A stretch of 35,539 nucleotides of DNA, from positions 1-35,539 of the forward strand of contig JADGEE010000023.1 of assembly GCA_016744535.1 (NCBI GenBank), given 5' to 3'. The notes under the pieces were generated by a model that did not search any database, was not told the origin of the DNA, and saw only the letters and a list, made by a program, of their open reading frames with translations. Below, in pieces: positions 9,997 through 30,148 of the stretch. Position 1 is the first letter of the stretch, and each line of letters begins with the position of its first letter. Source of the DNA: Campylobacteraceae bacterium (lineage in GTDB: Bacteria; Campylobacterota; Campylobacteria; Campylobacterales; BB28). The position numbers and the translations under genes were made by a program.

Positions 9997-10539
9997 GTGA
10001 GAAATATTTTTCTTATCTTATTATTAATTTATAATCTTTTTGCAAGAGCAGGCGATTATAGTGATTTAATTTTAGATATGCATGCAAATATTTTACCAAA
10101 ATTAGTACTTATGGATTTGAAATTTAAAGATAAATTAATAGATTCAAAAGTATTAATTTCAATACTCTATAATAATGGTGATAAATATATTGCTCAAAAA
10201 TTAAAAAAACTAATAAAAAAAAGATATAAAAATGGTATTAAAAATATTCAAATAAAAATTAAATTAATTCAATATGATGACTTTATAAAAACAGAAGATA
10301 AATCAACACTTATATATTTATTAGATACTTCAAAAGAGAATATATTAGATATAGTAGATTCTGCAAAAAAGAGAAGTTATATCACTTTTTCAAATAATAA
10401 AACTTATCTTGAGTTTGGTATTAATATGTCCCTTCATATTGGCAAAAAAGTAAAACCATATTTAAATTTAAAAAGTATGAAAGAGAATGGTATAGCTCCA
10501 ATTTCAACACTACTAAAAATTTCAAAGTTATATGAATAA
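9997..10539 (+). CDS. YfiR-like (DUF4154-type) periplasmic protein, copy A
   Basis: The 180-residue protein has a signal peptide (RNIFLILLLIYNLFARA) and a small alpha/beta domain. Its last third (strand, then INMSLHIGKKVKPYLN, then a helix with STLLKISKLYE) resembles the YfiR/HmsC family, whose founding member is a periplasmic repressor of an inner-membrane diguanylate cyclase. Here its partner appears to be a histidine kinase instead: the kinase ATG overlaps its stop by 8 nt (ATGAATAA). A paralogue with the same arrangement is at 20711-21232. The start is GTG at 9997, after an AAAGG. Family assignment is moderate; the link to the kinase is inferred from coupling. Confidence 0.7.
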   Translation: MRNIFLILLLIYNLFARAGDYSDLILDMHANILPKLVLMDLKFKDKLIDSKVLISILYNNGDKYIAQKLKKLIKKRYKNGIKNIQIKIKLIQYDDFIKTEDKSTLIYLLDTSKENILDIVDSAKKRSYITFSNNKTYLEFGINMSLHIGKKVKPYLNLKSMKENGIAPISTLLKISKLYE

Positions 10540-11977
10540 ATCATCTATTATCATTAAATTAGGGCTTACATTTTCAATATTTTTTATTTTAACTATACTT
10601 TCATTAAGTTTTATAAATATTTTTATAGCAGATAAAAATTTTAAAATTTCTGAAATGGAAAAAGTAAAAATTTTACTTGACACTATCAATCCTGTACTTG
10701 CACTAAATTTAAGTTTTGGTTTCTCTGAACTCTCTGAAACACTAGATTTACTATTCAAAAATAATAATATATTAGCTGTTAAAATTATCAAAGATGATGA
10801 AATTATCTATTTAAAATATTCAAAAGATGAGTATAAAGATATATTTAATAAAAATATAGTAAATCATTTTCATCAAAAAGAGGATATTTTAGACCCATTT
10901 AGTAATACTAAAATAGCTTTAATAAATATAGTATATTCAAATCAAAACTATAAAAATATGATTAATGAATATATATTATATATATCTATTCCTATTGTAA
11001 TTTCATTAATATTTTTTACTCTACTTCTATATTTTTCACATTTAACACTACTGCCCCTTAAAAATTTAGCCCATAAAATGAAAGATTTTTCTCCTAAAAA
11101 GAAAAATTTTACTATTCATAAAATAAGTGGTGAGGATGAGATTGCTATTATAAATAACTCTGCAAAAGTTATGATTGAAAAGATAAATGAGTATACATAC
11201 AAACTTGAGGATATAAATAAAAACCTTAAAAACCAAGTTAAAATAGAAGTTCGTAAGAGCAGAGAAAAAGATAAACTTTTAATAGAACAGTCTCGTCAAG
11301 CTGCGATGGGTGAAATGATTGGAAATATTGCACACCAATGGAGACAGCCATTAAATGCACTAGGACTTGTACTTCAAAATGTTCAAATTAGTTATCAAAG
11401 AGGTAAATTAAATGATGAGCAAGTTGATAGAATAGTTACTAAAGGAATGAAATTAATCAATAAAATGAGTACAACTATTGATGACTTTAGAAACTTTTTT
11501 AAACCAAATAAGATAAAAGAAAAATTTAATATTTATAAAGCAATTAATGATAGCTTACAATTAATAGAAGCTAGTTTAAAAAATAATAATATTAGTGTAG
11601 AGATAAAGGCAAAAAATATTTATATTATATATGGTTATCCAAACGAATTTTCACAAGTAATATTAAATTTATTGAGTAATGCAAAGGATGTTTTAATAGA
11701 TAGAAAAGTTCAAAATGCTAAAATAATAATTAATATATATGGTAATAATTTAAATTTTATTATAGAACTTGAAGATAATGCAGGAGGAGTTAATAAAGAG
11801 ATAATAGATAAAATTTTTGAACCATACTTTACTACAAAAGATGAGGGCAAAGGGACAGGAATTGGTCTTTATATGTCAAAAATGATAATCGAAGGTAATA
11901 TGTCAGGAAAGATTACTGTTTCTAATACAGAATTAGGAGCAATTTTTAAAATAATTTTACCAAAAAAGGATAATTAA
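10532..11977 (+). CDS. Membrane sensor histidine kinase paired with YfiR-like copy A
   Basis: A 481-residue inner-membrane kinase. Transmembrane helices lie at about 8-32 and 148-168 with a ~115-residue periplasmic domain between them, then a HAMP-like linker, a coiled coil, and the kinase core. The phospho-accepting histidine is His268 in IAHQWRQPLN. The ATP-binding lobe shows the N box (LNLLSNAKD), EDNAGGV and GKGTGIGLYMSK. No receiver domain or DNA-binding regulator is adjacent, so its response regulator must be encoded elsewhere. It is coupled upstream to the YfiR-like gene and downstream to an ankyrin gene (TAATG). Confidence 0.9.
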   Translation: MNKSSIIIKLGLTFSIFFILTILSLSFINIFIADKNFKISEMEKVKILLDTINPVLALNLSFGFSELSETLDLLFKNNNILAVKIIKDDEIIYLKYSKDEYKDIFNKNIVNHFHQKEDILDPFSNTKIALINIVYSNQNYKNMINEYILYISIPIVISLIFFTLLLYFSHLTLLPLKNLAHKMKDFSPKKKNFTIHKISGEDEIAIINNSAKVMIEKINEYTYKLEDINKNLKNQVKIEVRKSREKDKLLIEQSRQAAMGEMIGNIAHQWRQPLNALGLVLQNVQISYQRGKLNDEQVDRIVTKGMKLINKMSTTIDDFRNFFKPNKIKEKFNIYKAINDSLQLIEASLKNNNISVEIKAKNIYIIYGYPNEFSQVILNLLSNAKDVLIDRKVQNAKIIINIYGNNLNFIIELEDNAGGVNKEIIDKIFEPYFTTKDEGKGTGIGLYMSKMIIEGNMSGKITVSNTELGAIFKIILPKKDN

Positions 11978-12549
11978 TGAAGTATTTATTAATATTAATA
12001 TTAATTTTAAATTATATTAATGCAGATAGAAAAAATGGTTGGAGTTCTATGCACGAAGCCATATATTCTGAAAATAAAGAGGAATTATTAAGTTTAATTG
12101 AAAATATTAATATAGAGAAAAATATAGATATAAATTCTAAAAGTAAAGCTGAAATAACACCACTTCATATGGCTGTTAAAATGAGAAATTTTGAATTTGT
12201 AAAAATTTTAATTACAAATGGTGCGGATGTAGATGCACAAGATAAAAATGGTTTAACACCTCTGCATTATGCATCTGGACAGAGATTGTTTAAAATGGTT
12301 AAGTTTTTAGTAAAAAATGAAGCTGATGTAAATATCCAAAATAATTATGGCATAACACCACTTCATCAAGCCTCTTTTAAAGGTGCTGTTGATATAGTAG
12401 AATTTCTGTTTTTAGTTGGGGCTGACCCTAATATCAAAAATTTAAATGGACATACAGCCTTTGATTTAGCCTTTGCTAAAAAGAGAATGGGTGTAGCAGA
12501 GTTTTTATTACCTATTACTAAAGGAGCAAAATTTGAAATTGATAATTAA
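11977..12549 (+). CDS. Exported ankyrin-repeat protein
   Basis: The 190-residue protein has an N-terminal signal peptide (MKYLLILILILNYINA) and four to five ankyrin repeats, seen as TPLH cores at residues 61-64, 94-97 and 127-130 with matching GADVDAQ, EADVNIQ and GADPNIK turns. The repeats fill the mature protein, so it is a periplasmic protein-binding scaffold. The ATG overlaps the kinase stop (TAATG), which suggests it works with the YfiR-kinase pair, perhaps as a binding partner of the kinase's periplasmic domain. That role is inference. The thiS gene starts inside its last codons. Confidence 0.85.
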   Translation: MKYLLILILILNYINADRKNGWSSMHEAIYSENKEELLSLIENINIEKNIDINSKSKAEITPLHMAVKMRNFEFVKILITNGADVDAQDKNGLTPLHYASGQRLFKMVKFLVKNEADVNIQNNYGITPLHQASFKGAVDIVEFLFLVGADPNIKNLNGHTAFDLAFAKKRMGVAEFLLPITKGAKFEIDN

Positions 12550-12899: not shown

Positions 12900-12925
12900 A
12901 AAAATTTATTTTATTGGAGGAAGTA

Positions 12926-15184
12926 GTGTTTATTAGAGTAGTTTTAATCTTGTTTATATTATCTTTTAATCTTTTTGCAACTGAAACTTCACAAGAAAAT
13001 TTAGACATTGTCTGGATAGTTATAGCTACTGCTTTAGTATTTTTAATGCAAGCAGGTTTTACAGCATTTGAAGCTGGTTTAGTTAGGGCAAAAAATTCAA
13101 TTAATGTTGCAGTTAAAAATTTTAGTGATTTAACCTTTGCAATAATTGCTTACTTTTTAATTGGTTTTGCTTTAATGTTTGGAGCTGACTATCTAGGTTT
13201 TATGGGAAGTACTGGATTTTTACTTGATGGATTTAATAAACCTTATGATTATGCTTTTTTTATGTTTCAAGCAGTTTTTGCCGGAACTGCCGCTACAATA
13301 GTTTCAGGTGCAGTAGCTGAGAGAATGAAATTTGGAGGTTATCTCTTAATTTCATTTGTCTTATCAGGGCTTATCTATCCAGTTTCAGGTCACTGGATTT
13401 GGGGTGATGGAGGATGGTTGGCTGAAAAGGGATTTGTAGATTTTGCAGGTTCAACTGTAGTTCACGGGCTTGGAGCTTGGGTAGGATTGGTTGGAGCTTG
13501 GATGCTAGGGCCTAGAATTGGAAGATTTGATGAGAAAGGTAATGTTTTAGATATACCTGGGACTAACTTGCAAATGGCTACTGTCGGAGTTTTTATATTA
13601 TGGTTTGGCTGGTTTGGATTTAATGGAGGCAGCACACTTGTAGGAGATGGAAGTATTGCAAAAGTTGTGCTAAATACCTCTTTAGCGGCAGCTATTGCTG
13701 GAGTTGTAAGTTTTATAGTTTCACATTTAATGACAGGTAGGGCAGAAGTTATAAAGTTAATAAATGGCTCTTTAGCAGGGCTTGTAGCAATCACAGCAGG
13801 ATGTGCTGTTGTTGAGCCAATTGGTGCATTATATATTGGAATTGGAGCAGGGCTTGTAGTTCATTTAGCTGAATCAATTTTACTAAATTATTTAAAAATA
13901 GATGATCCAATTGGTGCAATTCCCGTTCACGGAGTTGCTGGTGCTTGGGGAACTGTTGCATTAGCTCTTTTTGCTCCAGTTGAAGCACTTCCTTTAGGCT
14001 CACATATAGACCAACTATTAATTCAGGGATTAGGTGCTTTTGCAGTTTTCCTCTGGGCTATTATTGCAGGTTTAATTCTATTTGGAATACTTAAAATAAC
14101 TAATAATTTAAGAGTGCCTCCACATTATGAAACAAGAGGATTAAACGAATCGGAACACGGTGCAAAACAGTCACTATTAGATACTTATGATGCAATTGAC
14201 TATATGGTAAAGCACGGAGATTTTGTAAAAAAAGTTGAAGTTGAAATTGGAACTGAAGCTGGAGATATAGCAAGAATATTTAATGTTTTAGCACAAGAGT
14301 TACAAGAAGTCTCTATTGTAGCTGAAAGCGTAGCTAGTGGAGATTTATCTAAAACAGTAACTCCAAAAGATGAGAGAGATAAGTTAGGTTACGCTATTTC
14401 TAAAATGGTTGAAGATTTAAAAACTTTTACAAATGAGTTAAAAAGTACTTCAACTCATATAGAAAAATCTCTATCTACTCTAAATAGTAGTAATAGTGAA
14501 TTTTTAAATTCAAATCAAGAGTTATTAAATGGTGTTAATTTAATTTCAAGTAGTGTAAGTGAGACAACAAAAGCAATTTATACAGTTGAGAGTTTGTCAA
14601 GTGACGGAATTAAGTCATTAAACATTGTTGTAAATGATATGAAAGATTTAAATGATATGATGTCAAATTTTAAAGTAAATATTGAAGAGTTAAATTTAAA
14701 TGTTAGAGAGATAGGTTCAGTCCTTGGAGTCATAAATGATATAGCAGATCAAACAAACTTACTCGCATTAAATGCAGCAATTGAAGCGAGTCGTGCAGGG
14801 GAGCACGGAAGAGGATTTTCAGTTGTTGCTGATGAAGTTAGACTTTTAGCAGAAAAAACACAAAATGCTATTAAATCAATTGAAGAGAGAATTAATATTT
14901 TAAAAAATAATTCAGATAGTGCAGTTCAGAGTGCAAGTTATGGAATGGATAAAATAGGTGAAGGATTTAATGCTATTAATAAGACAAGCAGTGTTTTTAA
15001 TACTATCCAAAAAGATATTTTAGGCATTAGAGTAAAATCAGATGAGATAACAAAAACTGTAAATAATCAAATAAATATTACAGATATTGTTAAAAATTCG
15101 ATAGGTAAAGTAAATAATATTATAGATACTCTAAGTCAAAATAGTTTATCTCTAAAAAGAATTACAGCACACTTTAAAGTTTAA
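12926..15184 (+). CDS. Ammonium transporter (Amt) fused to a methyl-accepting chemotaxis signalling domain
   Basis: A single uninterrupted frame of 752 residues. Residues 1-20 are a signal-like hydrophobic segment. About 25-395 are a complete Amt/Rh channel with the hallmark residues: [10 protein letters not shown] with Asp172 and the first pore histidine His180, [10 protein letters not shown], and [11 protein letters not shown] with the twin histidine His335. After the usual Amt tail (SEHGAKQS) comes a HAMP-like segment (about 456-506, [21 protein letters not shown]) and a chemoreceptor cytoplasmic domain, with the CheA/CheW-binding tip at about 601-645 ([20 protein letters not shown]). There is no CheR-tethering pentapeptide. 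The GTG at 12926 is chosen because GGAGG lies 5 nt upstream; an in-frame TTG at 12914 overlaps that ribosome site. No glnK is adjacent. Likely role: ammonium sensing for chemotaxis, possibly with transport. Confidence 0.93.
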
Positions 15185-15188
15185 GTAA

Positions 15189-16376
15189 TTAAATAATAAT
15201 CTTAAATTCAACACCTTTGTGATTATTAAGTAAATTATTTTTAACTCCTATTTTTCCATTTATCTTCTCTAATATCATTTTTGAGAGATAAAGCCCAACA
15301 CCAGTTCCATTCTCCTCTTTTGTAGTAAAATTTAAATTAAAAATATTTGGTAAAATTTGTTCATCAATTCCACCGGCATTATCTCGTAAATAGATAAATA
15401 TGTTTTCTTTTTCTTTTAATACTTCTATCTCTATATCTCTATTTTCAATGTTTTTTTCTATAAAAGAGTCTTTAGAGTTATTTAATAGATTTAAAATCAA
15501 GTGTTTAAATTGGTTAAAAAATCCTTTTAATTTAATATTATCTTCTATTTTTAAATTAATGGAGATATGATTTTTAGCAAATTCATCCTCTATTAAAATT
15601 AGTACAGAATGTATTAAATCATCAATATCAAATATCTCCTCTTTTTTGTCTTCTCTAAAAAAATTTTTAAATTCATCAATTGTAGTGTTTAAGTGTTCAT
15701 TTTGAATATTAATTTTTGATGCAATTTCATCAAAATATTCTATTTCTAAATTTAAATTCTCTTTTTTAATTAATGCCTCTTTAGAAATACCAAAAGCTAA
15801 CATATCAATAATAGATATAGGTTGTCTTATTTGATGTGCTATTGCATCTATCATTTCTCCCATAAGTGCATATCTTGATTGCGAAGTCATTAATTTATCT
15901 TTTATAATTAACTCTTGAATTTTATTATCAACTTTTTTTTGAAGATTTAAATTTATATCTAAAAGCTCTAACTCTAATTTCTCTTTTATAATTTTAATTG
16001 AAGCTTTTGATATAATTTTTAATACATTTTTAGTTTTAATAGGTTTTGAGATATATCCATCAACTCCTAAATCTATTGCTTTTTGTAAATATTCAACTTC
16101 TTTAAATGCTGTTGTGATAATACACGGAACATCACTAACCATTTTAATCTCTTCAATTAACTCTAAACCACTCATTTTAGGCATTTTAATATCAGTAATT
16201 AAAATATCAATTTCATTTGATTTAAATTTTTCTAATCCATCTACTCCATTACTTGCCACAATAAATTTATTAAAAAAATCCTCTAAATTTAGAGCCATCT
16301 TTTCTCTAATACCACTGATATCTTCAACATATAAAATATTTAAACTTTTTAGAGTCTTGAAATCTATATCTTTCAT
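15189..16376 (-). CDS. Receiver-histidine kinase hybrid, cytoplasmic
   Basis: The 395-residue soluble protein carries an N-terminal receiver domain with phospho-acceptor Asp62 (ILITDIKMPKMSG) and the conserved Lys111 (SKP). A coiled coil and a histidine-kinase core follow, with His181 in IAHQIRQPIS, an N box (LNLLNNSKD) and ATP-binding glycines (GTGVGLYLSK). The receiver is N-terminal and there is no DNA-binding domain, so it probably receives phosphate and passes a signal on to another regulator. It is the last gene of the YfiR/kinase/TonB-receptor operon, 15 bp after the receptor gene. Its 3' end converges on the Amt-chemoreceptor gene with only 4 bp between. Confidence 0.9.
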   Translation of the reverse strand: MKDIDFKTLKSLNILYVEDISGIREKMALNLEDFFNKFIVASNGVDGLEKFKSNEIDILITDIKMPKMSGLELIEEIKMVSDVPCIITTAFKEVEYLQKAIDLGVDGYISKPIKTKNVLKIISKASIKIIKEKLELELLDINLNLQKKVDNKIQELIIKDKLMTSQSRYALMGEMIDAIAHQIRQPISIIDMLAFGISKEALIKKENLNLEIEYFDEIASKINIQNEHLNTTIDEFKNFFREDKKEEIFDIDDLIHSVLILIEDEFAKNHISINLKIEDNIKLKGFFNQFKHLILNLLNNSKDSFIEKNIENRDIEIEVLKEKENIFIYLRDNAGGIDEQILPNIFNLNFTTKEENGTGVGLYLSKMILEKINGKIGVKNNLLNNHKGVEFKIII

Positions 16377-16391
16377 TATAATTAATAACCT

Positions 16392-19247
16392 TTAAAATTG
16401 ATATTTATATGAGAAAAATATAACTCGACCATCTCTCTTTAAACCATTAGGTTGTAAACCAGTAATTGAGTTATATCTTATATCTTTATTGAGTAAATTT
16501 TTAATACTTAAACTATAATAGTTATTGGCATTTTGTTGCCATACGATGTTTTCATCTAAACTTACAAAAGATTTTATCTCATTTGAGTGTAAATCTTTTT
16601 CAATTTCACCTCTATAATTTACAAAAGTATGAAATCTTAAATTTGGCATTGGTGAGTATGTGTAAACACCTTTAATTAAAGTCTGTGTAGAATCTGGTAA
16701 ATATGTGGCACTTTGAGAGTTTTCTAACTTTACTAAGCTATAACTTAAATCTATATGATTTTTTCTATTTAAAGAGTGTGAATACTCAATTTCAATTCCT
16801 GTAGTCCTTATTTTATTGATATTTTTAAAAAAATATTCTAAACTTGAAATTTCTTGGGGGGTATCCTCAACTACTTCATCTATCTCTTCTGCTGTTTCAT
16901 TTTGTGTAGGAGTTGATGTTATAGTCGGAAGTACACCACTATCATCTTCTGTTGTTGTGTTAGTATTAACTACAATATTATTATTATTATTATTTATTGG
17001 TTGAGTTATGTCAGGTTTCACCTCTTGAGGTTTTTCTTCAGTTTTTATATCAACTCCATTTGTTGAAATATCATCTGTAACTTCTACGGTATTACTATTC
17101 TCAATTTCAATATTTGTTTCAGTTGGTTCTATATCTTCATTTATAATAGGTTCTTCAATATTATTTTCAGTAGGAATAGAATCTATAATAACTTCTTCAG
17201 TAGGAATAGGTTCTTCAATATTATCTTCAGTAGGAATAGGTTCTTCAATATTATCTTCAGTAGGAATAGGTTCTATAATAACTTCTTCAGTAGGAATAGG
17301 TTCTTCAATATTATCTTCAGTAGGAATAGGTTCTATAATAACTTCTTCAGTAGGAATAGGTTCTATAATAACTTCTTCAGTAGGAATAGAATCTATTATT
17401 GGTTCTAGTGTTGGTTCTATATTGATTCCAACTTCGCTAGTATCATCAGATTCTATGATTACTACAACTTCGTGTGGAGATACTATTCCTTCAATTTCAT
17501 TTGTAGTTGTAATTATAGGTTCTGTCAAATCTTCCTCTATATCAGTGTTCTCTACATTTAAATTTTCTTGACTATCTAAAATTTCACTTTTTTCTAAAAT
17601 TTCATCTTTTAGAGTAAATGGAGTATTTATTCCTCTAAGTCTTGCTTGAACAGAATCAATATTTACATTTCGTTTTTGTATATCCCTAACTCTTGTGCTA
17701 TCAGTAACAGACGGAACACTATACGCGTCAATTGTGTCTGTTAAAGTATAACTAAAAACATTTATTTGCAGTGAAGTTGTTTTTAATATATTTTCATAAA
17801 TTAAACTAGCCTCAATTCCTTTAGATTTTTCACTACTAAGTGCAGATGTTAATTGTTCACTCCAAGATGGTAATCTATAAGCTCTATTAAAGACACTTTT
17901 TATTTTAAACTCATCATTAATTCTATAAATTCCACCAATTTGTAAACTATATTGAGATTTATATTTCTTATAATTATCAAATCTTGTAAATAGCGAAATA
18001 TCAAAGTTTTCATTAACCTCATAAATATTTTGGAGATAAAGAGATAGTTTATCTATTTCTGAATTTGGTTTTATATATATCCCTTTTAATATCTCATCTT
18101 CAAAATTTTTATTATAAAGATACTCATTTTCAATAGATTTAATATACTCTTTTTTTACACCTATTTTTAAATCATTATTATAAAACTTTTTAAATTTAAA
18201 TGAAGTATCAAAATATAGTGTTTTATCTTTATAGTTATTTCCAGATAACAATCCATTATTTGGTATCTCTTTAGCTGAACTATTATAATATCCGAACTCT
18301 TTTGGAACAACTTCAAACATAGCTTTATTTTCAAAGATATTTATTCCTGATTTAAAAGTCAAATCACCAAAAGAGATAGTATTTTTATATTCAAACTCTG
18401 AAAGAAAAGATTTTTGATTTTGCTCTTGAGGATTATCTTCTAATATCTCATAAATTCCAAAATAGTTTCCACTCTTTTGATTTTTTAAACGGGTATATAT
18501 ACTAAAGTTATCTTTTTTTGCATATATCCCAATTGAGTAATCATTAATACTCTCATCAGATTTTCCACTATTTATCTCAAATTCACCTTTATCTGAATCC
18601 AATGTAACAGGTGTTGAATCATTTTGATTATCCTCTTTTTGATAATAGACATCAAATTTAAGTGATAAGCCATTTTCGTTTAAAGAGTAATTTGCTCCAC
18701 CTCTATTTCTATTTCCACTTCCACTACTTATAAATATATTATTATTGTTAGATACTGTTTTTGTTTTTGTAATAATATGAATTGCACCAGAATATGCACC
18801 ACTTCCATATAATGCTGAATTTCCTCCACGAAAAACTTCAATTCTATCAATTAACTCTATTGGAAAGTTTAAATAAAAATGTGATGTTCCTCTTGTTGTA
18901 TCATTTACTGCAATTCCATCAATAAAGAATTTTATTTTATCAAAGCCTGATAAAAAAGCACTTCTTTGTCCTCTAATTACAGGAAATAACCAACCATTTG
19001 ATAACATTGATAATTCAACTCCAGAGATTAAAGCAAGAGCTTCAAAAAGATTTTTTGCACCAACTTTTTCAAAATCATCTTCTCTTAAAACTGTAATGGC
19101 AGAGGGCATATCTTTAATATTAAGTTTACTCTCTGTTGCAATATCTTCGGCTTCTTGTAAAATATCTGATAGTGCTTCACTAGAGTAACTATTTGTATGA
19201 CTAAGTGAAATTAACATTAATATAATTAAATAAATATCTCTTTTCAT
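16392..19247 (-). CDS. TonB-dependent outer-membrane receptor with repeat-bearing loop
   Basis: A 951-residue outer-membrane receptor. It has a signal peptide (KRDIYLIILMLISLSHTNS), a plug domain (MPSAITVLREDDFEKVGAKN, then VFRGGNSALYGSGAYSGAI) and a 22-strand-type barrel ending KYQF. Between the strand NVFSYTLTDTIDAY and KNINKIRTTGIEIEY, where other receptors have a short extracellular loop, lie roughly 285 extra residues that are acidic and Pro/Thr-rich and include eight 10-residue repeats and a poly-Asn run. The ATG at 19247 gives the signal peptide at residue 1; it overlaps neither neighbour and starts 10 bp after the kinase stop. The ligand is not predictable. It is co-transcribed with sensor proteins, so it may be a signalling receptor rather than only an importer. 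Confidence 0.9.
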   Translation of the reverse strand: MKRDIYLIILMLISLSHTNSYSSEALSDILQEAEDIATESKLNIKDMPSAITVLREDDFEKVGAKNLFEALALISGVELSMLSNGWLFPVIRGQRSAFLSGFDKIKFFIDGIAVNDTTRGTSHFYLNFPIELIDRIEVFRGGNSALYGSGAYSGAIHIITKTKTVSNNNNIFISSGSGNRNRGGANYSLNENGLSLKFDVYYQKEDNQNDSTPVTLDSDKGEFEINSGKSDESINDYSIGIYAKKDNFSIYTRLKNQKSGNYFGIYEILEDNPQEQNQKSFLSEFEYKNTISFGDLTFKSGINIFENKAMFEVVPKEFGYYNSSAKEIPNNGLLSGNNYKDKTLYFDTSFKFKKFYNNDLKIGVKKEYIKSIENEYLYNKNFEDEILKGIYIKPNSEIDKLSLYLQNIYEVNENFDISLFTRFDNYKKYKSQYSLQIGGIYRINDEFKIKSVFNRAYRLPSWSEQLTSALSSEKSKGIEASLIYENILKTTSLQINVFSYTLTDTIDAYSVPSVTDSTRVRDIQKRNVNIDSVQARLRGINTPFTLKDEILEKSEILDSQENLNVENTDIEEDLTEPIITTTNEIEGIVSPHEVVVIIESDDTSEVGINIEPTLEPIIDSIPTEEVIIEPIPTEEVIIEPIPTEDNIEEPIPTEEVIIEPIPTEDNIEEPIPTEDNIEEPIPTEEVIIDSIPTENNIEEPIINEDIEPTETNIEIENSNTVEVTDDISTNGVDIKTEEKPQEVKPDITQPINNNNNNIVVNTNTTTEDDSGVLPTITSTPTQNETAEEIDEVVEDTPQEISSLEYFFKNINKIRTTGIEIEYSHSLNRKNHIDLSYSLVKLENSQSATYLPDSTQTLIKGVYTYSPMPNLRFHTFVNYRGEIEKDLHSNEIKSFVSLDENIVWQQNANNYYSLSIKNLLNKDIRYNSITGLQPNGLKRDGRVIFFSYKYQF
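16856..16861. repeat. Homopolymeric G6/C6 tract in the receptor gene
   Basis: Six consecutive G on the plus strand (C on the coding strand, codons ACC CCC) at the edge of the inserted loop. Such a tract is rare in this AT-rich DNA. In this phylum longer tracts of this kind undergo slippage. Confidence 0.5.
16976..16995. repeat. ATT trinucleotide run encoding poly-Asn
   Basis: A short run of TTA/ATT triplets within the receptor loop encodes consecutive asparagines. It can change length in frame. Confidence 0.6.
17161..17400. repeat. Eight contiguous 30-bp tandem repeats in the receptor gene
   Basis: Eight head-to-tail 30-bp units share the core CTTCAGTAGGAATAG and encode a 10-residue unit of the form (I/E)(E/D)(P/S)IPTE(E/D/N)(V/N)I. 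Two sequence types alternate irregularly, a sign of repeat shuffling by recombination or slippage. The unit length keeps the frame open. There are no spacers, so it is not a CRISPR array. Confidence 0.95.
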
Positions 19248-19257
19248 AATCATAACT

Positions 19258-20718
19258 TTATATTGGAATCTTAATTGAAAAGTATGCACCAAAATAGACT
19301 TTTTTATTAATTTTAAATTCTCTATTTAAAATGGAGAGTTTTCCGTGCATATTTTCAATTATATTTTTAGACATATAGAGACCAATTCCTGTACCTTTTC
19401 CCTCTTCTTTTGTTGTAAAATATGGCTCAAACACTCTATCCATTATCTCCTCTTTAATTCCATTGCCACTATCATAAACTTCAATTAAAGCATATTTTAA
19501 ATCATTACTTAATTCTACCTTACTTTGAATTAAAATTACTTTTTCTAATGTATTTTTTTCAAGCAATATATCTTTTGCATTTGATAATATATTTAAAATA
19601 ACTTGCTCAAATTCATTCTCATATCCAAATGTTTTAATGTCATTATCTAAGCACTCTATTAAAGTTATATTATTATTTATAAGTGATGCTTTTATCATTT
19701 GAATAGATTTTTTAATTGCTTTATTTAATTTAAAGTTATGTTTTTCTTTATTTGGTGAAAAAAAGTTTCTAAAATCATCAATTGTATTTGACATATTTTC
19801 TATTAATTCATCTCCCTCAGCAACCCTATCTTCTATAAATTTTTCATTTAATTTACCTTTAAAATAAGCAAGTTCAAATGATTGAATTACTAATCCAATC
19901 TCATTTAATGGCTGTCTCCATTGATGTGCAATATTTCCAATCATTTCACCCATCTGTGCAAGTCTTGCTTGTTGAAACATCAATTTATCTTTTTGACGAT
20001 TTTTTTCTATTTCATTTTTAACTCTGTTTAAAGTTGATTCTATTTTGTCTAACATATTTTGGATAGAGTTAATAATTAAACCTCTCTCATCATTAAAGTA
20101 ACTATTTTCTAATTTAAAAGATTTAAAATTATCAAAGTTTAAATTATAGATAGTATTTGCTAATTTTGTAAATGGAGATAGTAATCTTCTAATTAAAATA
20201 GAAAATATAGATATTATAATTAAAATTAAAAGAGAAATTAATATTGTAAATTTTTGATAATCATTAATAGTTTCTAAATATGATTTTGCAGAGTAGTAAA
20301 TAACCATATAGTAATTTTTATCTAAATTATAAAAATATAAAAAATGTGGAGTTGGTTTATTAATTAATTTAATTTCATTTAAAAATCTACTCTTTGTAGA
20401 TTCAATATCTATTTTTGAGTAAGTTGTAATTAATCTATTATTTCTATCTTTTATATCCATTTTTAATATATTTTCAATAGAATCAATTTTTTTAAGCACA
20501 TCTGTAACTCCCTCTAAATCTTCAAATGATAACATAATGAGAGTATCGTCTCTAAAAAAAGATGCTATCTCTTTAATTCTATTAACTTTTTCCTCTTGCA
20601 AAGTTGGATAAGTAATAAAGTTGTTATATAGATAAAAAAGAGTTATTATAACAACAAATAGTATTATTACGATAACACTAATTTTATTTCCGATTGAAAA
20701 AAATCTGTTTTTATTCAT
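19258..20718 (-). CDS. Membrane sensor histidine kinase paired with YfiR-like copy B
   Basis: A 486-residue paralogue of the kinase at 10532-11977 with the same plan: transmembrane helices at about 12-32 and 157-176, a ~125-residue periplasmic domain, linker, coiled coil and kinase core with His265 in IAHQWRQPLN. The ATP-binding lobe has LNILSNAKD, YDSGNGI and GKGTGIGLYMSK. Its ATG overlaps the stop of the YfiR-like gene by 8 nt (ATGAATAA, identical to copy A), and its stop is 10 bp before the TonB-receptor start. It likely reads the periplasmic YfiR-like protein and signals to the receiver of the fourth gene or to another regulator. That flow is inferred. Confidence 0.9.
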   Translation of the reverse strand: MNKNRFFSIGNKISVIVIILFVVIITLFYLYNNFITYPTLQEEKVNRIKEIASFFRDDTLIMLSFEDLEGVTDVLKKIDSIENILKMDIKDRNNRLITTYSKIDIESTKSRFLNEIKLINKPTPHFLYFYNLDKNYYMVIYYSAKSYLETINDYQKFTILISLLILIIISIFSILIRRLLSPFTKLANTIYNLNFDNFKSFKLENSYFNDERGLIINSIQNMLDKIESTLNRVKNEIEKNRQKDKLMFQQARLAQMGEMIGNIAHQWRQPLNEIGLVIQSFELAYFKGKLNEKFIEDRVAEGDELIENMSNTIDDFRNFFSPNKEKHNFKLNKAIKKSIQMIKASLINNNITLIECLDNDIKTFGYENEFEQVILNILSNAKDILLEKNTLEKVILIQSKVELSNDLKYALIEVYDSGNGIKEEIMDRVFEPYFTTKEEGKGTGIGLYMSKNIIENMHGKLSILNREFKINKKVYFGAYFSIKIPI

Positions 20719-21232
20719 AAATTTTCGAAACTTTTAATAGAGTTGAATTAAGTTGTATATCTGATTTTTTAATTATTTTTTTATTAATAATTGGTTTTAC
20801 TCTTCTATCAGCAGAGAGTGCAATTGATACGCCTCTTTTTAACATCTCTAATTTGTTTGCAAAAGTTAAAATATGGTTTTTAGTCGCAAAATTTATTACA
20901 AAATCAAGTATCTCATCACTTAAATTAAATAGATAAATTGCAGTTGCATCTTTTAAATCTTTTTTTACATTATTCTCTTTAATTAATACTATATTTAGTG
21001 GATGATTTTTAATAGATTTATATTTTTTGAGGATAAAATTTTTTAAATTTTTTGCATCGTTTTCTAAGGCGTTGTTATAAATAATAATAAATTTTATCTC
21101 TTTATCAATAATCTTTTTATCTAAATTTCTATCATAATTTAATATATGGGTAAATACTTTTGAATGTATTAATAAATCGCTTCCAAATACAAAATTAAAA
21201 AATATAATTAATGAAATGAATATTTTAATCAT
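20711..21232 (-). CDS. YfiR-like (DUF4154-type) periplasmic protein, copy B
   Basis: The 173-residue protein has a signal peptide (MIKIFISLIIFFNFVFG) and the same fold pattern as copy A, including the closing segment VSIALSADRRVKPIIN and LNSTLLKVSKIYE. GGTGAG lies 9 nt before the ATG. In other proteobacteria YfiR-family genes commonly sit beside TonB-dependent receptors and diguanylate cyclases; here the receptor is present but the effector is a histidine kinase. The four genes from 21232 leftward overlap or are separated by 10-15 bp, so they form one operon. Confidence 0.7.
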   Translation of the reverse strand: MIKIFISLIIFFNFVFGSDLLIHSKVFTHILNYDRNLDKKIIDKEIKFIIIYNNALENDAKNLKNFILKKYKSIKNHPLNIVLIKENNVKKDLKDATAIYLFNLSDEILDFVINFATKNHILTFANKLEMLKRGVSIALSADRRVKPIINKKIIKKSDIQLNSTLLKVSKIYE

Positions 21233-29536: not shown

Positions 29537-30148
29537 ATGTTAAGAAGAATTATTACTACTTTAGTATTAATAGGTGTTTTATTTTCAGCTAATGCTAGAA
29601 TGATTAGTGCTAAAAATTTAGAAAAAGAGAATGGTTTGATTTATCTTAAAAATGATAAATATCCATTTACAGGTAAAGCAATTTATTACTATTCAAATGG
29701 TAAAAAAAAGAAAATAATCCCTTATAAAGAGGGTGAAATTGATGGTGCATTAGAGAGTTGGTATTTAAATGCTAAAAAGAAAGAGATAGCTTATTTTAGA
29801 AATGGTAAGCAAGATGGTGAGTATACTCTATGGCATAAAAATGGAAATAAAAAAATTACTGCTTATTTTAGAAGTGGTAGACAAGATGGTGAAGTAACTA
29901 CTTGGTATGCAAATGGAAATAAAAAGAGTCGTTCATATTTCATTAGAAATAGACAAGATGGAAATATGGTAACTTGGTATAAAAATGGTCAAAAAGAATC
30001 AGAGGGAACACTTTATAGAGGTAAACAAGATAAAAAATTAACACTTTGGCACTCAAATGGACAAAAAGCAAAAGTTTTATATTATGATAGAGGAGAGTTA
30101 GAAAAAGAGTTAGGAGAGTGGGATAGAAACGGTAAAGCTTTAGATTAA
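29537..30148 (+). CDS. Exported MORN-type (YwqK-like) repeat protein
   Basis: The 203-residue protein has a signal peptide (MLRRIITTLVLIGVLFSANA) and about six repeats of ~23 residues with the pattern G(K/R)QDGE-x3-W(H/Y)-x-NG-(N/Q)KK, as in the YwqK/MORN_2 family. The repeats make an elongated beta structure. The function of secreted members is unknown; some are linked to contact-dependent systems, but no toxin gene is adjacent here. GGA lies 8 nt before the ATG. It converges with the SprT-like gene, with a single base between the two coding regions and no separate terminator. Confidence 0.85.
   Translation: MLRRIITTLVLIGVLFSANARMISAKNLEKENGLIYLKNDKYPFTGKAIYYYSNGKKKKIIPYKEGEIDGALESWYLNAKKKEIAYFRNGKQDGEYTLWHKNGNKKITAYFRSGRQDGEVTTWYANGNKKSRSYFIRNRQDGNMVTWYKNGQKESEGTLYRGKQDKKLTLWHSNGQKAKVLYYDRGELEKELGEWDRNGKALD

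What the first reader, a model, noticed from the sequence alone, without database searches (positions are those of the whole stretch)
16855..17720. About 285-residue acidic loop with 10-residue tandem repeats in a TonB-dependent receptor
The insertion falls between barrel strands where other receptors have an extracellular loop, judged from the short turn that follows the next strand. It is acidic and Pro/Thr-rich, with eight exact 30-bp units (17161-17400) in two interleaved types plus a poly-Asn run. Thirty-bp units change length without breaking the frame, so strains could vary loop length at the cell surface, affecting adhesion, phage or immune recognition, or metal capture.
Basis: partly seen in the sequence, partly recalled or inferred. 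Interest (0 to 1): 0.65.

Follow-up and report, generated by a model that had tools for sequence, protein, structure and literature searches.

The report
Acidic repeat loop in outer-membrane receptor
One outer-membrane receptor gene of an unidentified bacterium carries a roughly 290-residue, strongly acidic, probably floppy loop built partly from 10-residue repeats at a spot on the cell surface where relatives have about 5-20 residues; it is a real and unusual variant of a common receptor type, but what the loop does, and whether its length varies between strains, is unknown.

Summary
Gene 16392-19247 (minus strand) encodes a TonB-dependent receptor with about 292 extra residues (window 16845-17720; pI 4.05, net charge -66). 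The repeats are eight in-frame 30-bp units at 17145-17384 (order A A B A B B A' B'). Six are exact (3 A + 3 B) and two carry 1-2 changes, so "eight exact" is wrong. They are far beyond chance.

Extracellular placement is supported by homology. The insert falls in the alignment column of loop 8 of the solved receptor Cir, and 24 other receptors, eight of them from the same genome, have short loops there. Among about 100 near-full-length relatives in 399 genomes this open frame is the longest (977 codons; next 774).

The receptor lies in a four-gene operon: YfiR-like periplasmic protein, sensor kinase, receptor, response-regulator/kinase. The receptor/YfiR pairing, often with a kinase, recurs across the order and in the same genome without the loop. 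The gene is therefore probably a signalling receptor that acquired a disordered polyanionic loop by tandem duplication. Function, length polymorphism and ligand are untested: no conspecific genome is held, and the single-sequence structure prediction failed. It is a new variant of a known kind, of modest interest.

The parts
16392..19247 (-). TonB-dependent receptor gene (951 aa from ATG 19247); plug plus 22-strand barrel by homology, with the insertion
   Evidence: Plug PF07715 E 1.8e-19; profile matches Cir, PfeA and others in PDB; single open frame
16845..17720 (-). about 292-aa acidic insertion in the loop between the 15th and 16th barrel strands (loop 8)
   Evidence: alignment with 24 receptors that have short loops; Cir loop 8 column; composition
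17145..17384 (-). eight in-frame 30-bp units, order A A B A B B A' B' (A = PTEEVIIEPI, B = PTEDNIEEPI), six exact
17385..17414 (-). degenerate unit flanking the array (PTLEPIIDSI, 20/30 identical to A)
17097..17126 (-). degenerate unit flanking the array (PTETNIEIEN, 19/30 identical to B)
20711..21232 (-). YfiR-like (DUF4154) periplasmic protein, first gene of the probable operon
   Evidence: PF13689 E 6e-8; NF053591 25.6 bits, below cut-off 125
19258..20718 (-). membrane sensor histidine kinase, second gene
   Evidence: HATPase_c PF02518 E 1.4e-16; overlaps the YfiR gene by 8 bp and ends about 10 bp before the receptor's ATG
15189..16376 (-). response-regulator receiver plus histidine kinase protein, fourth gene, 15 bp after the receptor
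   Evidence: PF00072 E 3.3e-23, PF02518 E 2.1e-13

Best explanation
The gene is a TonB-dependent receptor of the YfiR-linked, probably signalling class. Its extracellular loop 8 has grown from about 5-20 residues to about 290 by insertion and repeated in-frame duplication of a 30-bp unit. The loop is most likely a disordered polyanionic tether lying over the mouth of the barrel. It probably acts electrostatically and sterically on what reaches the ligand site: concentrating cationic ligands, or keeping out other large binders such as bacteriocins or phage tail proteins. The barrel, plug and downstream YfiR-to-kinase relay would keep their ordinary role. Shown: insertion, composition, repeats, gene order, absence in relatives. 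Strongly inferred by homology: extracellular loop 8. Inferred from composition: disorder. Conjecture: the electrostatic screen or bait function and the signalling role.
For: Insert lies in the column of Cir loop 8, the loop that together with loop 7 hinges over the Cir binding pocket and contains R490 (PMC12511343). 18 homologues plus 6 other receptors of the same genome have short loops there. Open frame 977 codons against at most 774 in other matches from 399 genomes of the order. Net charge -66, pI 4.05; on the disordered side of the charge-hydropathy line (H 0.437 against boundary 0.494). Units identical in synonymous codons (log10 P about -6 for A and -5 for B under the window's codon usage) with degenerate units at the edges, as expected of recent unequal exchange or slippage. 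No MutL found in the genome while 14 of 14 control genomes give a hit. Receptor + YfiR, with or without kinase, recurs in relatives and in the own genome (C147, L056: receptor 676 aa, YfiR, kinase).
Against: No direct structural model: AF2 without an alignment failed (pLDDT 28.6). No functional data and no known relative of the insert. The loop occurs in a single known sequence, so selection for a function cannot be shown. The closest receptors are only about 30% identical, so the insertion cannot be dated. Ligand unknown.
Confidence: 0.45

Rival explanations
1. The loop is a neutral low-complexity expansion: loop 8 tolerates insertions, and repeat duplication in a genome without MutL has inflated it without selected function.
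For: Unique to one sequence; no relative anywhere searched; centre-exact, edge-degenerate array as expected of unselected unequal exchange; no MutL.
Against: About 290 residues kept open and strongly biased to acidic residues (77 D/E against 11 K/R) also outside the exact array, which drift alone would not readily keep; cost of secreting it.
Confidence: 0.3
2. The loop is a length-variable surface element that varies between strains by whole 30-bp units to escape phages, bacteriocins or grazers, or to change adhesion.
For: In-frame 30-bp units, six exact, synonymous identity; extracellular position; Cir loops 7 and 8 are the docking site of colicin Ia and microcin V (PMC12511343).
Against: No second strain is held; the one genus-mate has no matching insert and no close counterpart of the gene. 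Repeat number may also be misjudged in a 174-contig assembly.
Confidence: 0.12
3. The acidic loop binds metal ions or cationic ligands directly to feed the receptor.
For: Net charge -66 at the mouth of a TonB-dependent receptor; by analogy, long anionic flexible loops of LbpB, proposed to bind lactoferricin (PMC8577839).
Against: Only 1 His and no Cys in the insert, no ordered metal motif seen; relatives do without it.
Confidence: 0.08
4. The insertion is an assembly or annotation artefact, or lies in a periplasmic turn.
For: Draft assembly with 174 contigs; short repeats are hard to assemble.
Against: Frame stays open through the insert, barrel strands resume exactly at the conserved N-x7-G-x-E motif (invariant N809, G817, E819), and no second copy of that strand is found inside the insert.
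Confidence: 0.05

Closest known systems
Cir (colicin I receptor, PDB 2hdf, 9nn6)
   Same: Best PDB match of the family profile over plug and barrel (E 1.3e-63); loop 8 at the same column, extracellular, moves on ligand binding
   Different: About 23 Cir residues are extra to the profile at that spot, against about 290 here; Cir's pocket is electropositive, the insert is strongly acidic; no YfiR/kinase operon claimed for Cir
TOL_0244 / TOL_0243 (NCBIfam NF053590 and NF053591) receptor plus YfiR-like pair of Thalassolituus; OmpS of Alcanivorax
   Same: Receptor with a YfiR-like partner; the paper reports TOL_0244 induced on C28 alkane and OmpS needed for alkane detection and triggering a chemotaxis response (PMC6304351), a precedent for a sensing role
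   Different: Far below both NCBIfam cut-offs (54.8 against 645; 25.6 against 125 bits); no giant loop known; ligand of the window receptor unknown
YfiBNR system of Pseudomonas (YfiR)
   Same: DUF4154/YfiR-like periplasmic protein next to an inner-membrane signalling protein (own knowledge; PMC4655355 abstract)
   Different: Here the partner is a histidine kinase and the outer-membrane part a TonB-dependent receptor, not the YfiB lipoprotein and a cyclase
LbpB anionic loops (Neisseria)
   Same: Long flexible acidic loops on a surface iron-uptake component, unseen in crystal density (PMC8577839)
   Different: LbpB is a lipoprotein with unrelated fold; its loops are not tandem 10-residue repeats in a receptor barrel loop
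Paralogous operon in the same genome (G000:C147, locus L056)
   Same: Receptor + YfiR (44% identical) + sensor kinase (404 bits)
   Different: Receptor of 676 aa with a loop of about 9 residues; only 22% identical to the window receptor

Membership tests
TonB-dependent receptors | N-terminal plug domain PF07715 | tested here: met
   E 1.8e-19, 70.6 bits, cut-off 23.9
TonB-dependent receptors | 22-stranded barrel (PF00593 or alignment over the barrel to a solved receptor) | tested here: met
   PF00593 does not ring on this gene itself, but the family profile containing it aligns over the barrel to Cir and PfeA, and strands before and after the insert align with 24 receptors
TonB-dependent receptors | TonB-dependent transport or signalling activity | not testable with these tools
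   needs experiments
TOL_0244 family TonB-dependent receptor (NF053590) | score above curated cut-off 645 | tested here: not met
   54.8 bits
TOL_0243 YfiR-like (NF053591) | score above curated cut-off 125 | tested here: not met
   25.6 bits
YfiR/HmsC-like DUF4154 (PF13689) | score above gathering cut-off 24.9 | tested here: met
   33.3 bits
YfiR-linked signalling receptor operons | receptor beside a YfiR-like gene and a kinase or other signalling gene | tested here: met
   window order YfiR-HK-receptor-RR/HK; YfiR neighbour in most relatives, kinase in several, and both in L056
Length-variable (contingency) surface repeats | different repeat numbers between strains or cells | not testable with these tools
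   no second strain held; genus-mate lacks the insert
Length-variable (contingency) surface repeats | in-frame, near-identical tandem units | tested here: met

The most novel reading that the evidence does not exclude
A signalling TonB-dependent receptor whose giant, recombination-tunable polyanionic loop 8 sets the sensitivity or selectivity of an outer-membrane-to-kinase relay (receptor to YfiR to histidine kinase), so that repeat number acts as a genetic dial on surface sensing.
Probability: 0.08. Interest if true: 0.65.

Novelty: new variant of a known kind. Interest (0 to 1): 0.33.

Why it matters
Loops 7 and 8 of Cir are where colicin Ia and microcin V dock, so a 290-residue charged insertion at the equivalent place would change what can dock on such a receptor. 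If the repeat number varies in nature, it would be a simple system for studying how surface charge and loop length tune receptor access, and it draws attention to an understudied class of receptors coupled to YfiR-like proteins and sensor kinases.

Tried and rejected
The genome-contig scan for the receptor gave only two remote receptors. Plasmid search with the repeat region: none. Relatives of the insert in 399 genomes: only three marginal hits (E 0.001-0.005) in short frames, judged composition noise. A resemblance of residues RNVNIDSVQARLRGIN inside the insert to the next barrel strand (which could have meant a duplicated strand and a periplasmic insert) was tested with a strand profile: no match, while the real strand at 808-839 scores 23.7 bits. 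Promoter and terminator scan of the operon: no more hits than in shuffles, uninformative. Identity of the organism: Thiovulum was considered because the family holds only two genomes, but published Thiovulum genomes are 1.7-2.2 Mb (PMC9938260) and this one is 3.0 Mb; left open.

Full report
OBSERVATION. The open frame 16392-19292 on the minus strand (966 codons from TTG; probable ATG at 19247 or 19253) encodes a protein with a hydrophobic N-terminal leader and a TonB-dependent-receptor plug (PF07715, E 1.8e-19). Residues 525-816 of the 966-aa reading, window 16845-17720, are an insertion of 292 residues with 77 D/E, 11 K/R, pI 4.05, rich in E, I, T, P and N; the rest of the protein has pI about 5.8. 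Eight 30-bp units stand in frame at 17145-17384, order A A B A B B A' B', where A is PTEEVIIEPI and B is PTEDNIEEPI. Three A and three B units are exact; the last two have one or two changes. The units also agree in synonymous codons (log10 P about -6 and -5), and degenerate units flank the array on both sides, the pattern of recent duplication or unequal exchange. The genome has no recognisable MutL, while all 14 control genomes have a hit; this fits tolerance of slippage but does not prove it.

WHERE THE INSERT LIES. In 18 homologues from other genomes of the order and from the same genome, the two barrel strands on either side align well, and the loop between them (after the strand ending near D-x-I-D, before the motif N-x7-G-x-E) is about 5-20 residues. 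Six further receptors of the same genome also have short loops there, at most about 40 residues. A profile of the family aligns with Cir (2hdf, E 1.3e-63): the insert sits where Cir has 23 extra residues, about 472-494 by my count. The 2025 Cir paper places R490 in loop 8 and describes 22 strands and 11 extracellular loops, with loops 7 and 8 covering the ligand site and hinging open when colicin Ia or microcin V binds (PMC12511343). This homology places the insertion in extracellular loop 8. A possible duplicated strand inside the insert, which would have allowed a periplasmic placement, was tested and not found. A direct model could not be obtained.

HOW UNUSUAL IT IS. In 399 genomes of the order, the family profile finds matches in 106; the window's open frame (977 codons) is the longest, the next being 774, 774 and 773 (at most two candidates were scored per genome). 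The insert has no relative in its own genome, in the single genus-mate, or in the order beyond marginal composition hits, and no family match in NCBIfam. The nearest receptors are about 30% identical outside the insert, and in the tree all its clade-mates have short loops.

SURROUNDINGS. The four minus-strand genes are tightly packed: YfiR-like DUF4154 protein (20711-21232), membrane sensor histidine kinase (19258-20718), receptor, and a receiver/histidine-kinase protein (15189-16376). A YfiR-like gene stands near most of the homologous receptors, and a similar kinase near several. The same genome has a second operon with receptor, YfiR (44% identical) and kinase (404 bits), whose receptor has a loop of about 9 residues. 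NCBIfam holds a recognised receptor/YfiR pair, TOL_0244/TOL_0243, which the window proteins resemble but do not enter (54.8 against cut-off 645; 25.6 against 125). TOL_0244 is induced on long alkanes, and the related OmpS is reported to be needed for alkane detection and to trigger chemotaxis (PMC6304351). A signalling role for the window receptor is therefore likely by association; its ligand is unknown.

MECHANISM. Most likely the insert is a disordered polyanionic tether at the barrel mouth. Composition places it on the disordered side of the charge-hydropathy boundary. It would raise local negative charge and steric bulk exactly where ligands and parasitic binders dock in Cir. There is no second strain, one histidine and no cysteine in the insert, and no functional data. 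Neutral expansion is a serious rival.

VERDICT. Interest is modest because it is a singleton whose function and variability cannot be tested here.

Noticed in passing
window 12914-15184 (+): A protein of 756 aa joins a full ammonium transporter (PF00909, E 3.8e-119; TIGR00836 over cut-off) to a chemotaxis signalling domain (PF00015, E 1.9e-38): an Amt-MCP fusion, possibly an ammonium chemoreceptor. One full-text search turned up two papers, neither of which appears from its title and abstract to be about such a fusion.
   Followed up: partly
window 9997-12549 (+): A second YfiR-like gene (PF13689, 25.2 bits) overlapping a histidine kinase gene and followed by an ankyrin-repeat protein, without a receptor beside it.
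   Followed up: partly
G000 contigs C147, C114, C85, C164 (L056-L059): The genome holds six YfiR-like genes (two in the window), three of them beside receptor genes elsewhere in the genome, so YfiR-linked receptors seem expanded here.
   Followed up: partly
window 29537-30148 (+): A 203-aa MORN_2-repeat protein with a 72-bp tandem repeat (78-85% matches) at 29789-29961.
   Followed up: no
G000:C33 and C31 (L040, L041): Two closely related receptor copies in the genome (end branches 0.06 and 0.18), without a YfiR gene found nearby.
   Followed up: no
whole genome G000: No MutL homologue found, while all 14 control genomes gave a match.
   Followed up: no
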